Shown here: positions 10,570 to 17,563 of the stretch, piece after piece
Numbering within the stretch: the first letter of the stretch is position 1
Layout of the letters: every line of letters starts with the position of its first letter
NCBI GenBank assembly: GCA_018830725.1
Contig: JAHJRV010000066.1
Location: forward strand, 1-44,789
Origin: Actinomycetota bacterium
Lineage (GTDB): Bacteria; Actinomycetota; Humimicrobiia; JAHJRV01
Length of the DNA stretch: 44,789 nucleotides
Direction of reading: 5' to 3'
Program-made: the position numbers and the translations under genes
The notes under the pieces: model-generated
Told to the model about the DNA's origin: nothing
The model's database searches: none
The model's input: only the letters and a program-made list of their open reading frames with translations

Positions 10570-11382
10570 TTACTCAAAAATATTATCAAATGTTCTCCCA
10601 AATGTTTCTTCTCTTTCAATCTCCTTAGTAGGGAGCAAAGCTAACCATACACTGCCCATCTCTTCAGTGAAAACTAATTTCTCTGAATCCCCTGGAGTTA
10701 CTGCCAAAGTTATTGTTTTTATTTCAGATTTTTTAGCCCTCTCTTCAGTTTGAGCACCCAGGATTCCTTCAGCTCGTTCAGTAGTTTGAGTTATTTCAAT
10801 CCTGGTACCTATATATAAAACCTCAACATTCCATAGTAAAGTCTTTGTAATTTCTTGTTGGATTTCTTCAAGAGCTTCTTCAGCTTCTTCAGCTTCTGGA
10901 TAAACCGTTATAGGTTGTTCCTCGGTTGGTTTGAAAGTTGCAATAACATTAACTCTATCTCCAACATTAATTAGATTAGATACACCTATTACCTCATTAA
11001 CAGGAATGGAAATAGCTACCATATCATCGGGAATAATAAAAGCTAATCCAATATCTTCTGGTTTAATAAGCTTTGTCGCAGTAATTTGTTCTCCCTTATT
11101 TATTGGCACAGCAGCAACATATCCTTTATAATCTTCAAGAGAAGTAAGAACCCCTTCTGCCAGATATTTTCTTGGGATTGCCTGAGTAATAACACTACCG
11201 TTAGCAATTATAGTTTCAACCGGAGTTTCCCCCGGGATATTTTGAGCTGCTACAAGAACCTCAATTTTTTCAACTTCCTCTTCCACTGAAGCCCTGATAT
11301 TACTTATGTACCCTATTACTGCCACAACAGCAATTATAGCTAAAATAATTGCTATAATTAGTATTACAATTCGCATTCTCAT
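10570..11382 (-). CDS. cpaB: Tad pilus assembly protein CpaB/RcpC (SAF domain)
   Basis: This 270-residue protein has one N-terminal membrane helix (5-27) and a SAF domain with EKIEVLVAAQNIPGETPV, followed by VPINKGEQITATKL. The C-terminal half has the family strand AISIPVNEVIGVSNLINVGD. CpaB lies in the periplasm and in other bacteria supports the outer-membrane secretin channel. No secretin gene lies next to it here. A spacer of about 150 bases with a tandem repeat separates it from the tadG-like gene. Confidence 0.85.
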   Translation of the reverse strand: MRMRIVILIIAIILAIIAVVAVIGYISNIRASVEEEVEKIEVLVAAQNIPGETPVETIIANGSVITQAIPRKYLAEGVLTSLEDYKGYVAAVPINKGEQITATKLIKPEDIGLAFIIPDDMVAISIPVNEVIGVSNLINVGDRVNVIATFKPTEEQPITVYPEAEEAEEALEEIQQEITKTLLWNVEVLYIGTRIEITQTTERAEGILGAQTEERAKKSEIKTITLAVTPGDSEKLVFTEEMGSVWLALLPTKEIEREETFGRTFDNIFE

Positions 11383-11484
11383 TTTTTTCCCTAACTTTTA
11401 AAATTTATATAATCTATATATTTACTATTTATAATAACTGTTTATAAAAAAAAGCAATATTTATTAATTAATAATCCTTATTAC

Positions 11485-11553
11485 CTTATAAGTCTTACTA
11501 TTCTATAAGTTTTACTAACCTATAAGTCTCACTAGTCTATTAGTCTTACGACT
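11485..11553. repeat. Four imperfect 17-bp tandem repeats across the tadG-like stop codon
   Basis: Units of the type CTATAAGTCTTACTANN follow each other at 11485, 11503, 11520 and 11537, with period 17 (18 for the first). The stop codon of the tadG-like gene (11532-11534) lies within the array, so the last codons (RVVRLID) are part of it. Replication slippage is the likely origin. Confidence 0.7.
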
Positions 11554-12545
11554 CTAAGTCCTCCAGATTGAACAGGAATAATGCTACCTTCAGTTATAAC
11601 CAAAGCTTGGCTAAGAAACGTGCCTGTAATTGAGATACCATGACCATATACAGGATCGTGCATATCATGAATGCCAGTAATAATAAAAGGTGCAAACGCC
11701 ACTATTTCAACTTCATCATGTCCATGAACTTCCCCCAAACCATCGATTATTGGGACATAAATAAATTGACTATCAGGGTCGGTGAGTTTATAACCTGTTC
11801 CAAATACAGGATCTATATATTCAGCAACAAGTTCAAAAAATCCATCCAGTAAATTATTATGCTGCCCATATACTCTTTCGTTTACTCCTTGTAATGTTTT
11901 ACCTACCTTATTTCCTGTCAATGTTTCTATCATATCACCAACAGACAAAGGTGTACTGGCACCATCAATTATGTTATCCTTATATTCACTACCTCCAGGA
12001 CTATCGATTGTCAAAGGTTGATAGTTACCACAGACACCACCGCCAGGTGGTCCAGAACCATATTTTAATACAACTTCTTCACCAGGATCCCAGCTATCCT
12101 GTGGAACTCCCCATGGTACTACACCTACATGTTCTTCTGGCGAAGCTATCATAGCTGTTGCTGAAGCTACAACCTGTGTATGACTTAATCCTATAACTCT
12201 TGCAAAGTAAAGAGGAGCATTAGGATTTATTGCATTCACAGTAATCGTATCATCTTCAGCCAATGTAGAACTAATTATTACATCACTGGAATTAATAATT
12301 AAACCATGTTTTGAACCATATTCAATAGCTACGTTTATAGCCCCGTCCACATCCTCTGGCAATTCTTGGACCCCAGCTAAAGCTGCAGCATCAGCAACAG
12401 TTTGAAGATGTCTTCTTTCTTCATAAAGAGAACCCACATCTATAGCTAAAGCTGTTACCATCATTAGTGCTATAATGCTTAAAGCAACTATGACTACAAC
12501 TGCACCATTTTCACTTTTAAATCTTTTAATCTTCATAATTCTCAT
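11532..12545 (-). CDS. tadG: TadG-like pilus-associated protein
   Basis: This 337-residue protein starts with a short basic segment, then a membrane helix preceded by ENGAVVVIVALSIIALMMV, and then LAIDVGSLYEERRHLQTVAD, the signature of TadG-related proteins. The remaining 250 residues are a predicted extracytoplasmic region of beta-rich, glycine-rich sequence without a vWA motif. Many TadG proteins carry a vWA domain; here that domain is instead fused to TadB. A minor pseudopilin or envelope anchor is the likely role. A degenerate copy of its 3' end exists at 14655-14706. The ATG at 12545 has a second ATG two codons later, so the exact start is open. Confidence 0.75.
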   Translation of the reverse strand: MRIMKIKRFKSENGAVVVIVALSIIALMMVTALAIDVGSLYEERRHLQTVADAAALAGVQELPEDVDGAINVAIEYGSKHGLIINSSDVIISSTLAEDDTITVNAINPNAPLYFARVIGLSHTQVVASATAMIASPEEHVGVVPWGVPQDSWDPGEEVVLKYGSGPPGGGVCGNYQPLTIDSPGGSEYKDNIIDGASTPLSVGDMIETLTGNKVGKTLQGVNERVYGQHNNLLDGFFELVAEYIDPVFGTGYKLTDPDSQFIYVPIIDGLGEVHGHDEVEIVAFAPFIITGIHDMHDPVYGHGISITGTFLSQALVITEGSIIPVQSGGLRVVRLID

Positions 12546-12621
12546 CTTCTTATTATTTAAAAATTTACACTATTAATAGATATTATTAAAGATATTATTA
12601 ATAATTTTATAAAAAAGTTTA

Positions 12622-13023
12622 TTATTCATAATTCTCAAGACGCATAACTGCTTTATTTGTAAGTGGTATATTCCAACTTCCCACAAGTGGTATTTCTATA
12701 GTAATATTATAAGTAATCTCAACTTCTACAGGATCACCAATATTTGTTCCCTCAGGAGTAGTAATAATTATATCATCTTCAGTAATAGGAATTGGGTATG
12801 CTCTTTCAATTATAATGTCTTTAAGGTCAGGATTATTAAGATCTACAGCAGCCCGCCTGGCACCTTCTCTTGCTGCGTGAGTAATAGTAATATAGTTATT
12901 ATATGCTATTCCAAATTGAAATATTCCAAATACCAGCATTATCAATATGGGCAGAATAATAGCAAATTCTACCGCACTGGCGCCTTTTTCATTTTTTATT
13001 ATTCTGATGCTTTTTATTTTCAT
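12622..13023 (-). CDS. tadE: TadE-like minor pseudopilin
   Basis: This 133-residue protein has the TadE pattern: NEKGASAVEFAIILPILIML near residues 11-30, with a glycine before the hydrophobic segment and the conserved glutamate, then FGIAYNNYITITHAAREGARRAA. Prepilin peptidase processes TadE proteins, and they are needed for Flp pilus formation. It stands 76 bases before the tadG-like gene. The IS110 insertion upstream separates it from the pilin genes, so its own promoter or transcription from the element may now drive it. Confidence 0.85.
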   Translation of the reverse strand: MKIKSIRIIKNEKGASAVEFAIILPILIMLVFGIFQFGIAYNNYITITHAAREGARRAAVDLNNPDLKDIIIERAYPIPITEDDIIITTPEGTNIGDPVEVEITYNITIEIPLVGSWNIPLTNKAVMRLENYE

Positions 13024-13130
13024 TGTCTCTTAATTTAATTAGAAATTTATTTATAATTCTAATTATATGAACTATTTAAAAGATGTGTTTACAAACACAT
13101 GTTCTTATACATTGAAAAATATATAACCTT

Positions 13131-13235
13131 GTCATTCTGACCCTGAGTGTAACGAAGGGTAAGAATCTCATTATATTTATCTTTTTAAAAGGAGATTCTT
13201 CACTTCGCTATTGTTTCGTTCAGAATGTACTGTGT
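13131..13235. repeat. REP/MITE-like palindromic element with TCATTCTGA ends
   Basis: A region beginning GTCATTCTGACCCTGAG and containing AAGAATCTCA is mirrored by GGAGATTCTTCACTTCG and TTCGTTCAGAATG, forming a long imperfect inverted repeat of about 100 bases. A related single arm is at 20699-20740. These are common noncoding repeats in bacterial genomes. The element borders the end of the IS110 insertion. A short hairpin (ATGTGTTT/AAACACAT, 13083-13100) lies just left of it. Confidence 0.65.
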
Positions 13236-13267
13236 CAAGATATCAAAATTTTTGAAAATTAAATATA

Positions 13268-14257
13268 TTAACAATAAGCAAAACTTGTAAATTTCTCTTC
13301 ATAATTTGGGTCATATTTCCTATCATACTTTAATACTACAAATATCTGTCTGACTAATTTATTTAATACTGCTACTCTTAATACCTTATGTTCTTTCCCT
13401 TTTAAACTTAATCTTTCATACATATTCCTGCAAGCATTATTATGCTGCATTGCACTAAGTGATGTCATAAATAGTTGCTTTCTTAGATAACTATTACCCT
13501 TTTGACTGATTCTTCCTCTTCCTCTTAAAGAACTACCAGATTCTTTGGGTGAGGGATTAGTTCCTATATAGCTAACTACCTGCTTGCTATTTTTAAAATC
13601 TTCAAATCTACCAAAAAATGCAATAATTATAATAGCTGTTTTAGGACCTACTCCAGAAATTGAAAGCAATCTACTGTACTCATTAAGATAATGCTTATTT
13701 ATTAAATTTTTTAGTTCTTCTTCCAGTCTTTTAATTGAAATATTAAGCTCAGAGATTAATTTGTTAAAACATTCTTCTACTGATCTTTCCTTTAATGGGT
13801 CCTTATCTAAAGCCCCCAAACGATTTAAATAGTTATTTTTAGATACTGTAAGATCTTCTATTGCTTTGAGTATCTTTATTATTCTTTGTCTCTTTTTAGA
13901 TCTTGGTTGAAATAATTTAACATCTTGTTCATAACCGTATTGAGCAATTACTTTTGCATCCACTTTATCTGTTTTTGCACGAAGCATTTTCATCTCTGCA
14001 TATCTTTTAATTATTAGTGGATTAACTACAGATACAAGAAAACCTCTCTCATACAATATATTGGCTAATTGTAAATGATAGATTCCAGTAGCTTCCATAA
14101 CAAACAGTAGATCCTTTTTACCTTTATCATACTTTTTTAAGAATCTTTCAATGTCAGAATTTTTATTTAAGATAACTTTAAGTTTATGATTTTTGCCATC
14201 GTATTCAGAAATATTCAGTTTCTTCTTTGATACATCAGCTCCAATTACTAATTTCAT
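13268..14257 (-). CDS. IS110-family transposase (DEDD)
   Basis: This 329-residue recombinase has the N-terminal RuvC-like DEDD domain: GADVSKKKLNI with the first aspartate at residue 8, the FVMEATGIY glutamate near 55, and KTDKVDAKVIAQYG with the last aspartates near 97-101. A coiled central region follows. The C-terminal Transposase_20 domain is LLSISGVGPKTAIIIIAFFG plus SYIGTNPSPKESG, and a serine in that domain is expected to serve as nucleophile. Length is normal and the frame is intact. GGGAGGAG precedes the ATG. IS110 enzymes work with a noncoding bridge RNA from the element. Confidence 0.92.
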   Translation of the reverse strand: MKLVIGADVSKKKLNISEYDGKNHKLKVILNKNSDIERFLKKYDKGKKDLLFVMEATGIYHLQLANILYERGFLVSVVNPLIIKRYAEMKMLRAKTDKVDAKVIAQYGYEQDVKLFQPRSKKRQRIIKILKAIEDLTVSKNNYLNRLGALDKDPLKERSVEECFNKLISELNISIKRLEEELKNLINKHYLNEYSRLLSISGVGPKTAIIIIAFFGRFEDFKNSKQVVSYIGTNPSPKESGSSLRGRGRISQKGNSYLRKQLFMTSLSAMQHNNACRNMYERLSLKGKEHKVLRVAVLNKLVRQIFVVLKYDRKYDPNYEEKFTSFAYC

Positions 14258-14280
14258 ATTTTTCTCCTCCCTTTTTAGTC

Positions 14281-14432
14281 TGATGTGGAGAGCTATAATC
14301 TATCATCGTAATTTATACAGGCTTTTTAACCTAATGTACTGTTCAGATTTATTAGAGAAGGCGGGTTTAACATTCTGAACGGTCTTTAAAAACCAATGAC
14401 AATGCAAACTTATCCGCCTTCTCTCCACATCA
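14281..14432 (-). ncRNA. Candidate IS110 bridge RNA (noncoding left end)
   Basis: The noncoding end upstream of the transposase has nested pairing on the minus strand. TGATGTGGAGAG (14281-14292) pairs with CTCTCCACATCA (14421-14432). AGAGAAGGCGG (14354-14364) pairs with CCGCCTTCTCT (14414-14424). GTTCAGA (14341-14347) pairs with TCTGAAC (14374-14380). The first two helices share bases, so they would exclude each other. Length, position and orientation fit the bridge RNA of the IS110 group, which lies before the transposase. The pairing is seen directly; the RNA identity is inferred. Confidence 0.6.
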
Positions 14433-14654
14433 ATTTATTTGATACAATTTTATCAATTATGTTAACATAAACACATAATATCAACATACGATGACAAAAA
14501 ATATAAATTAATTCATATTTATATTTTATAAATAGTAAACTGTAAACACCAAGTTTAAATAGTACAAATTATAAAATATTTAACTTAATTTAAAATCTTA
14601 TAGTTACCAGGTAATTCTATTAATTAGAATCACCAGGAGATAATTCAAATAGTA

Positions 14655-14762: not shown

Positions 14763-14948
14763 TTAAGGAGTAGCAGTGTCAAGAGCGTCTTTTATATAAG
14801 TGAATACAGCATTTAGCTGTCCACCGAGAGCAGTAACAGTAATAATTATAGCTACAGCAATAAGTGCGACCATAAGAGCATATTCTATGGCAGTTGCCCC
14901 TTCCTCCCTTCTTATATAGGTCATAAGCCACTTGATTAAAAAGCCCAT
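14763..14948 (-). CDS. flp: Flp-type pilin
   Basis: This 61-residue prepilin has a short basic leader (MGFLIKWLMTYIRREEG), then the Flp motif GATAIEYALMVALIAVAIII with the conserved glutamate and tyrosine, a hydrophobic helix and a short polar tail. Cleavage would fall after the glycine of EEG. AAAGGAGGTG, an almost ideal ribosome site, lies 4 bases upstream, in keeping with a major structural subunit. It is the second of two tandem pilin genes. Confidence 0.92.
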   Translation of the reverse strand: MGFLIKWLMTYIRREEGATAIEYALMVALIAVAIIITVTALGGQLNAVFTYIKDALDTATP

Positions 14949-15023
14949 TTTTCACCTCCTTTGATATGAATTTATTTAATTTTTCCATTTTGTCATTGAC
15001 CACCGGAATTGATAAGAGCCTTA

Positions 15024-15203
15024 TTAAGTTCCACCAAGAGAATCTATTATATTTTGGAATACCGTATTTATCTGTCCACCAAGAAGCCCAACAGTAACAA
15101 TTATAGCTACAGCAATAAGTGCAACCATAAGAGCATATTCTATTGCAGTTGCTCCTCTCTCTTTTTTTATAGAGGTCATAAACCATCTAATTAAAGAGCT
15201 CAT
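15024..15203 (-). CDS. flp: Flp-type pilin, second copy
   Basis: This 59-residue prepilin starts at ATG 15201-15203 behind AGAGGCG and ends in TAA at 15024-15026. The leader MSSLIRWFMTSIKKERG is followed by GATAIEYALMVALIAVAII, identical in the helix core to the neighbour. The two genes and their 3' flanks are alike, pointing to tandem duplication. It is the first gene after the riboswitch-terminator leader and should respond to it directly. No prepilin peptidase gene is present in the window. Confidence 0.88.
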   Translation of the reverse strand: MSSLIRWFMTSIKKERGATAIEYALMVALIAVAIIVTVGLLGGQINTVFQNIIDSLGGT

Positions 15204-16173: not shown

Positions 16174-17563
16174 GGGACTGTGTTATATTTTCTGTAAAAT
16201 TGATCTTTGAAAATTTGAATGGGTCATCAAAATCCTTCATAATGTTTAAAAAACATTTAAAAAGGAGGTAACCAGATGACCCAAGTAAATATTACTAAAT
16301 TAAAAGAAATTTATCAAGAAGCAGTAGAAAAAGATTCTGATTTTATGAAGAAACTTTCAAACTACATACTGCAGAAAGTAATGGAAATGGAAAGAGATGA
16401 ACAGATTGGTGTTAAAGAGTACATAAGAGATGAAAAACAAAGAAAAGGAAGTAGAAATGGATACAAAAAGAGAACTTTTAATACTAGATTAGGTAAGATG
16501 GAGTTATTAAAGCCCCAGATAAGGGAATTTCCCTTTAATACAAATGTGTTTGAATATTATCAGAGAAGTGAGAAGGCATTGATGTTAACAATTCAACAGA
16601 TGGTGATAGATGGAGTATCTACAAATAAGGTGAAAAAGATAATAGGCAAGCTATCATCTGATTTAAGTTTTTCTAAATCAACAGTTTCAAGACTAATGAA
16701 AGAGCTAGATCCTATGATAAAGTCCTGGCGTAATGAGAAATTAAGTAAAAATTATGCTTACATTATTCCAGATGCTTGTTACTTTTATGTAAGAGAAAAC
16801 AGTTCTGTTGTAAAAAGACCTCTATTAATTAGTGTGGCAGTAGATATGACCGGTTATAGGAAGATATTAGGAGTAGATATGAAAATTGATGAGAGTGAAG
16901 AGTCCTTAAAGAGAACATATATTAAGTCTTAAAGAAAGAGGACTAAAAACAGTAAATCTTACTACATCAGATAATAATAAGGGACTAGTTAAAGTACTTA
17001 CTGAAGAGTTTGCAGGAACTGCCCATCAAAGATGTATGGTTCATTTTGAGAGAAATTTATTATCTTATGTACCTGCAAAGGAAAGAAAGCTGTTGAGTAA
17101 ATACATAAAGGCAATATATAGTTGCCCTAATAAAGAGATGGCATTAAAGATAGCAAATTTAATATCAGATAAATACAGAAATATTTATCCTAAGCTATCA
17201 AAACTTTTAGATGAAAATGTAGAAGAAACATTAACATTTTACAGTTATCCAGAAAATCATCACAGAAAGATTAGAACTACTAATATAATAGAAGGAACTC
17301 TAAATTCTATGTTAAAGAGACGTTCTAGAGTTGTTGGCATATTTCCAAACAGAGAATCGTGTATTAGATATGCTTGCTCTCTACTTATGGAAATAGATGA
17401 GGAATGGCAAACTAATAGAAGATATATGAGAATGCTAAAAGAAGATGAAAATTTAGATGTTGATGAATATTTCATGAGAGAGATAAATGACATAAGAAAT
17501 GAAATAAAAAAAGAGAAGGAGTTGGTGACTCTTTGAATTTTACAGAAAAATTGGGATTGACTC
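16174..17563 (+). mobile_element. IS256-family insertion sequence, degenerate
   Basis: The transposase remnant at 16276-17536 is flanked by imperfect terminal inverted repeats. The left end is GGGACTGTGTTATATTTTCT and continues GTAAAATT (16174-16201). The right end, read inward, begins GAGTCAATCCCAA and ends TTTTCTGTAAAATT (17536-17563). The inner 14 bases agree exactly; the outer right half has drifted. The length is usual for the family. Flanks share an ATTTAAA run that might be a target duplication, but AT-richness weakens this. Confidence 0.7.
16276..17536 (+). pseudogene. IS256-family transposase, frameshifted
   Basis: The first frame (16276-16932, 218 codons) holds the N-terminal part, with NGYKKRTFNTRLGKMEL, and the first catalytic aspartate in IIPDACYFYVRE. 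It breaks after ESEESLKRTYIKS. The continuation starts in another frame with EHILSLKERGLKTVNL near 16911, has the second aspartate in TTSDNNKGL and the AHQRCMVHFERNLL segment, and the final glutamate in TTNIIEGTLNSMLKRR, ending at 17536. A one-base shift near 16900-16912 separates the halves. All three catalytic residues remain in the sequence, so the damage is recent or an assembly error. AAAGGAGGTAACC precedes the start. Confidence 0.85.

What the first reader, a model, noticed from the sequence alone, without database searches (positions are those of the whole stretch)
13217..14381. Guide-like matches between the IS110 noncoding end and the palindromic repeat next to the element
The minus-strand RNA would contain CGTTCAGAATGT (complement of 14370-14381), identical to plus-strand DNA at 13217-13228 in the flanking REP-like repeat. 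It would also contain ACAGTACATT (complement of 14333-14342), identical to the minus strand at 13224-13233. Two segments matching opposite strands of one site is the logic of bridge RNA target guides. It suggests that this element targets TCATTCTGA repeats.
Basis: partly seen in the sequence, partly recalled or inferred. Interest (0 to 1): 0.7.

Follow-up and report, generated by a model that had tools for sequence, protein, structure and literature searches.

The report
IS110 element with REP-aimed bridge RNA

Summary
Both matches are real, but they belong to different guide pairs. The window holds a complete IS110-group insertion sequence, about 1,266 bp (13225-14490, minus strand): transposase 13268-14257, structured noncoding RNA about 14282-14431. 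Element-free copies of the host repeat in three same-genus genomes place the border at a shared ATG/CAT triplet (13225-13227 = 14491-14493). Given that border, CGTTCAGAATG is the right target guide, but ACAGTACATT is the left DONOR guide: it matches the element's own right end. All four lie in canonical bridge-RNA order; none of 20,000 shuffled RNAs scored as high. In 7 of 9 related elements (33-58% transposase identity) the right target guide pairs with its own flank, with guide and flank changing together, including a one-base guide/target change between copies in one genome and nine copies of one element in GTCATTGCGA repeats. The claim that the element aims at TGTCATTCTGA repeats is supported. 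It is a new member of a known kind (bridge-RNA IS110; REP targeting is known for IS621, ISPa11, ISPpu9/10).

The parts
13225..14490 (-). IS110-group insertion sequence (1,266 bp, counting one copy of the shared ATG/CAT triplet; the triplet is at 13225-13227 and again at 14491-14493)
   Evidence: Element-free repeat copies in G001, G002 and G003 join 13227 to 14494 with one ATG
13268..14257 (-). IS110 recombinase/transposase, 329 aa; D8, E55, D97, D100, S240 align with the IS621 active site
   Evidence: Pfam DEDD_Tnp_IS110 and Transposase_20; PDB IS621 1.8e-36, ISCro4 1.7e-33
14282..14431 (-). predicted bridge RNA; closing stem GATGTGGAGAG (14421-14431) / CTCTCCACATC (14282-14292)
   Evidence: Fold -48.7 kcal/mol, z -5.2; covariation with 10 relatives
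14355..14423 (-). target-binding hairpin: stem GAGAAGGCGG (14414-14423) / CCGCCTTCTC (14355-14364)
   Evidence: Identical to the left flank strand, window 14491-14497 reverse complement
   Evidence: Complementary to the right flank CATTCTGAACG; 0 of 20,000 shuffles
   Evidence: Identical to the element's RE end 13225-13233; 6 of 20,000 shuffles
14304..14310 (-). right donor guide (RDG) TACGATG
   Evidence: Complementary to the LE start CATCGTA (14487-14493); changes with LE in L050 and L099
13217..13227 (-). right target half, CATTCTGAACG in element orientation
   Evidence: Flank continuous with element-free copies
14491..14497 (-). left target half, TTGTCAT in element orientation
13225..13233 (-). 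RE end / left donor, ACAGTACAT
   Evidence: Same CAGTACAT at the RE of L050, L099, L100, L101 and L152 beside differing flanks
14487..14493 (-). LE start / right donor, CATCGTA
   Evidence: same or matching LE starts in relatives
13233..13238 (-). TTGACA in RE: -35 box of the promoter predicted at the joined ends
   Evidence: RE-LE junction TTGACA-18-TATTAT
14475..14480 (-). TATTAT in LE: -10 box of the same junction promoter
13129..13227 (.). REP-like palindrome hit by the element: arm TTGTCATTCTGACCC...AAGAATCTC and arm GAGATTCTTCACTTCG...TTCGTTCAGAATG (which continued into ACAA before insertion)
   Evidence: Sequence; element-free copies
13069..14565 (.). MITE-like dispersed repeat of the host that contains the target palindrome, interrupted by the IS110
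   Evidence: Repeat copies with GAACTATTTAA...TTAAATAGTAC ends

Best explanation
13225-14490 is an IS110-group insertion sequence of the IS621 kind. When its ends join in a circle, a promoter (TTGACA-18-TATTAT) forms and drives a bridge RNA followed by the transposase. In the target loop of the RNA, LTG TTGTCAT and RTG CGTTCAGAATG pair with opposite strands of TTGTCATTCTGAACG, the tip of a REP-like palindrome. In the donor loop, LDG ACAGTACAT and RDG TACGATG pair with the joined element ends ACAGTACAT|CGTA. The DEDD/serine recombinase exchanges strands at the CAT shared by donor and target and inserts the element in one orientation. Shown here: borders, target, all four guides, RNA fold and its covariation, conserved catalytic residues, guide/flank covariation in relatives. 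Inferred: expression, the circle, the exact core dinucleotide (probably AT), and activity.
For: Borders from element-free repeat copies; four guides in canonical order, summed match length 34 against a shuffle maximum of 24; RNA fold z -5.2 and 18 of 29 pairs with two-sided changes; right guide and flank change together in relatives, 1 of 20,000 permutations as good; homology to IS621 and ISCro4 with all five catalytic residues; junction promoter; layout as published for bridge RNAs (PMC11208160).
Against: No expression or transposition data. Only one intact copy in the genome. The element-free sites are paralogous repeat copies, not the orthologous locus. L101 has the same RTG with a non-matching right flank, and L152 pairs poorly. 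LTG and RDG alone are short (377 and 139 of 20,000 shuffles).
Confidence: 0.93

Rival explanations
1. One reading: CGTTCAGAATGT and ACAGTACATT are the two target guides, both reading the site at 13217-13233.
For: Both segments do match opposite strands of that stretch.
Against: 13228-13233 is element sequence, absent from element-free copies. CAGTACAT recurs at the RE of L050, L099, L100, L101 and L152 beside differing flanks. A better left target guide, TTGTCAT, exists in the target loop and matches the other flank.
Confidence: 0.02
2. The guides exist but the element is a dead or dying relic that no longer moves.
For: Single copy; absent from three same-genus genomes; an old LE remnant of the same lineage lies upstream of eno in G000 and G001.
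Against: The transposase frame, catalytic residues, both ends, all four guides and the junction promoter are intact; unoccupied full-match targets remain in the genome.
Confidence: 0.25
3. The element reached this repeat by homologous recombination or protein-only recognition of the palindrome, and the guide matches are by-products of shared ancestry with the repeat.
For: The target is a multi-copy palindromic repeat; some REP-specific insertion sequences of other families use no guide RNA (IS3 family, PMC1525189).
Against: Guide bases change together with the flank across relatives and repeat families, and the guides sit in the loops of a covarying RNA.
Confidence: 0.03

Closest known systems
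IS621 (IS110 group, bridge RNA; PMC11208160, PMC11208158)
   Same: DEDD plus serine recombinase with all catalytic residues aligned; RNA in the long LE upstream of tnp; two internal loops with LTG/RTG and LDG/RDG; core included in all four guides; insertion into REP palindromes.
   Different: Only distantly similar protein (1.8e-36); shared triplet CAT rather than a CT core; right target guide of about 9-11 nt instead of 4-7; different REP sequence and host.
ISEc21 (IS110 type, seekRNA; PMC11187229)
   Same: RNA upstream of tnp, target matches to both strands, promoter formed when the ends are joined, no target duplication reported.
   Different: ISEc21 has a linear target inside IS3-family transposase genes, not a palindromic repeat.
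ISPa11, ISPpu9, ISPpu10, ISRm19 (REP-targeting IS110-family elements; PMC1525189, PMC11187229)
   Same: High selectivity for repetitive extragenic palindromes of the host.
   Different: ISPa11 is IS1111-type with its RNA downstream of tnp; other REP families and hosts. No direct sequence comparison with these was made here.

Membership tests
IS110 family, IS110 group (bridge-RNA recombinases) | DEDD (RuvC-like) domain plus Tnp domain with catalytic serine | tested here: met
   Pfam DEDD_Tnp_IS110 and Transposase_20 above cut-off; D8, E55, D97, D100, S240 align with IS621 D11, E60, D102, D105, S241
IS110 family, IS110 group (bridge-RNA recombinases) | Structured noncoding RNA in a long LE upstream of tnp, short RE | tested here: met
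   RNA 14282-14431 upstream of tnp; RE only 40 bp beyond the stop codon
IS110 family, IS110 group (bridge-RNA recombinases) | Target loop with LTG matching the left target and RTG complementary to the right target | tested here: met
   TTGTCAT and CGTTCAGAATG against borders set by element-free copies
IS110 family, IS110 group (bridge-RNA recombinases) | Donor loop with LDG matching RE and RDG complementary to LE | tested here: met
   ACAGTACAT and TACGATG; donor guide changes with LE in relatives
IS110 family, IS110 group (bridge-RNA recombinases) | Core shared by donor and target and present in all four guides | tested here: met
   CAT in both DNAs and all four guides; which two bases are the core is not resolved
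IS110 family, IS110 group (bridge-RNA recombinases) | Circular intermediate with promoter at the joined ends | tested here: inconclusive
   Junction TTGACA-18-TATTAT predicted, 10 of 1000 shuffles as good; the circle itself was not observed and some relatives lack the promoter
IS110 family, IS110 group (bridge-RNA recombinases) | RNA bound by the recombinase and required for recombination | not testable with these tools
   Needs expression and assay
IS1111 group | Noncoding RNA in the RE downstream of tnp | tested here: not met
   Only 40 bp between the tnp stop and the border; the RNA is upstream
REP-targeting insertion sequences | Insertion at a fixed point of a dispersed extragenic palindrome | tested here: met
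   Element-free copies of the same repeat; relatives L050, L099, L153, L157 and nine G756 copies at GTCAT-type repeats. For the window element itself only one insertion is available

The most novel reading that the evidence does not exclude
This IS110 clade keeps a constant GTCAT anchor in the left target guide and core, and follows the palindromic repeat families of its hosts by changing only a few bases of the right target guide (targets CAT-TCTGA, CAT-CCTGA, CAT-TCCGA, CAT-TTCGA, CAT-TGCGA). REP families that begin with GTCAT would then form one continuous niche that the clade tracks across phyla.
Probability: 0.45. Interest if true: 0.5.

Novelty: new member of a known kind. Interest (0 to 1): 0.38.

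Why it matters
It gives a complete, sequence-derived guide/target/donor set for an IS110 clade not close to any solved one, with a non-CT shared triplet and a long right target guide. It also provides natural guide changes (for example L153 against L157, one base in guide and target within one genome) that could be used to study how these elements shift between repeat families. The mechanism itself is already established.

Tried and rejected
Other copies in the own genome: none intact, only an LE remnant. Relatives within the window's phylum: only one hit at E <= 1e-25 besides itself, at 27% identity, in 397 genomes. Viral contigs by protein: no relative. A scan of viral contigs for GRACAGTACATTAGG gave 46 stretches, none encoding this transposase by tblastn, so taken as chance. 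Plasmid tblastn gave only relatives at or below 37% identity, not pursued. Rfam: nothing at the gathering score. An orthologous empty tad locus in same-genus genomes was not found, so paralogous element-free repeat copies were used instead. Considered and rejected: the second match as a target guide (border evidence); IS1111 group (RNA on the wrong side of tnp). Structure prediction was not run because PDB homologues by sequence were decisive.

Full report
Observation. CGTTCAGAATGT is read from 14381-14370 on the minus strand and equals plus-strand 13217-13228. ACAGTACATT is read from 14342-14333 and equals the minus strand of 13233-13224.

The element. The minus-strand ORF 13268-14257 has both IS110 domains. 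By sequence it matches the solved IS621 (1.8e-36) and ISCro4 (1.7e-33) recombinases over residues 5-317; its D8, E55, D97, D100 and S240 align with the IS621 active-site residues D11, E60, D102, D105 and S241 (residue roles from PMC11208158). The transposase is present once in its genome and absent from the three same-genus genomes searched.

Borders. [quoted passage not shown] In same-genus genomes, flank position 13227 runs directly into 14494 with only one of the two ATG copies (13225-13227 and 14491-14493) present; the BLAST coordinates at G002:C76 overlap by exactly three bases. Direct alignments across the join are L080, L086 and L087 (TTCGTTCAGAATGACAACAAATA) and L085 (one base changed). 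These are paralogous copies of the repeat, not the orthologous locus; that is the weakest point of the border evidence, but four loci in three genomes agree. A diverged copy in G000:C144 also reads AAGAATGACAAC at this point.

Guides. In element orientation the left target is TTTTTTGTCAT, the right target CATTCTGAACGAAAC, the RE end CTTGACACAGTACAT and the LE start CATCGTATGTTG. Searching the RNA for border-anchored matches gives LTG TTGTCAT (7 nt), RTG CGTTCAGAATG (11), LDG ACAGTACAT (9) and RDG TACGATG (7), in that order along the RNA. The sum of 34 compares with a mean of 15.2 and a maximum of 24 in 20,000 dinucleotide shuffles. This is the layout defined for bridge RNAs: LTG and LDG pair with bottom strands, RTG and RDG with top strands, and the core is in all four (PMC11208160). 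The second is the left donor guide; it matches the neighbourhood of the target only because the element's own RE end sits there.

RNA. The strand folds into a closing stem and two hairpins with internal loops (-48.7 kcal/mol, z -5.2). Ten relatives share the architecture, and 18 of 29 consensus pairs have two-sided changes that keep the pair.

Relatives. Only distant relatives were found: L100 (57-58% identical), L099 (47-48%), L050 in a Candidatus Neomarinimicrobiota MAG (46%), L101, L152, L158 and a four-copy element in G702 (about 37-45%), and a nine-copy element in G756 (33%). Their flanks and guides were read by eye and scored. RTG and right flank change together. Window: CCGTTCAGAATG with CATTCTGAACG. 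L099: CCGTTCAGGATG with CATCCTGAAC. L153: CCGTTCGGAATG with CATTCCGAA. L157, L160, L162: CCGTTCGAAATG with CATTTCGAA. Nine G756 copies: CCCTTCGCAATG with CATTGCGA. L050 pairs 12 positions if wobbles count. One of 20,000 permutations of targets among the ten elements reaches the observed total pairing (6 of 20,000 for the eight without the exceptions; several guides are near-identical, which limits how far a permutation can fall below the observed value). The left target guide varies less; the clearest case is L099, LTG CACGTCAT with flank CACGTCAT. The donor guide also changes with LE: ACAATG with CATTGT in L050 and L099, ACGATG with CATCGT in the window, L100 and L101. Exceptions: L152 pairs poorly on both target sides, and L101 has the window's RTG but the flank CATCGTATGTTACAG, which resembles its right donor instead. 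The elements in this comparison are related, so the counts are not independent events.

Target. TTGTCATTCTGA occurs five times exactly in the 1.44 Mb genome. Two copies on G000:C147 are unoccupied and match the whole LTG-core-RTG stretch, TTGTCATTCTGAACG. The first arm of the same palindrome (13129-13140) is also unoccupied but departs from the RTG after TCTGA.

Expression. Joining RE to LE creates TTGACA-18-TATTAT in the window, and TTGACA or TTGACT with 17-bp spacing to TATACT or TATAAT in L101, L153 and L158; L152 has a weaker version. Junction promoters are described for this family (PMC11187229). L050, L099, L100 and L154 show no good junction promoter, so this feature is not universal in the clade.

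Novelty. REP-targeting IS110 elements have been known since IS621 and the 2006 survey (PMC1525189), and the guide mechanism since 2024 (PMC11208160, PMC11187229). This is a new member. Its distinguishing points are a shared CAT triplet (core probably AT, by analogy with the IS621 cut just after its core), an RTG of about 9-11 nt, and a clade that seems to retune mostly the right guide while keeping a GTCAT anchor. The last point rests on ten elements and needs a wider survey.

Noticed in passing
window 13069-14565; L079 (G001:C86, about 2619-2969); L081, L083: The target palindrome sits inside a dispersed MITE-like repeat with terminal inverted repeats (GAACTATTTAA...TTAAATAGTAC). In G001 a related copy interrupts an IS110 LE remnant and is flanked by a 9-bp duplication TGTTTATGT, while the same remnant is uninterrupted in G000:C155, so the repeat is itself mobile.
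   Followed up: partly
L015 (G000:C155:4268-4352) and L079 (G001:C86:2983-3041): Shared relic of an IS110 LE (94% to the window's LE) upstream of eno, cut off within the target-loop stem of its RNA; an element of this lineage was present before these species split.
   Followed up: partly
L101 (G655:C40), RE border: Right flank CATCGTATGTTACAG does not match this element's right target guide but matches its own right donor start (CATCGTAT); it may be an insertion at a donor-like site.
   Followed up: partly
L153 against L157/L160/L162 (G702): Near-identical elements in one genome differ by one base in the right target guide (CGGAATG / CGAAATG) and sit in targets that differ at the matching base (CATTCC / CATTTC): a natural reprogramming pair.
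   Followed up: yes
G000:C79:1424-1783 and G000:C100:26479-26844: Two Y1_Tnp (IS200/IS605-like tyrosine transposase) genes in the genome; whether they are linked to the REP-like palindromes was not examined.
   Followed up: no
window 16276-16932: 218-aa ORF that looks like the start of a mutator/IS256-type transposase, shorter than usual, possibly broken (family assigned from memory, not tested).
   Followed up: no
window 10570-13023 and 14779-15186: Tad/Flp pilus genes (RcpC/CpaB, TadG-like, TadE-like) beside the element; short duplicated stretches at 14779-15186 may be Flp pilin genes.
   Followed up: no
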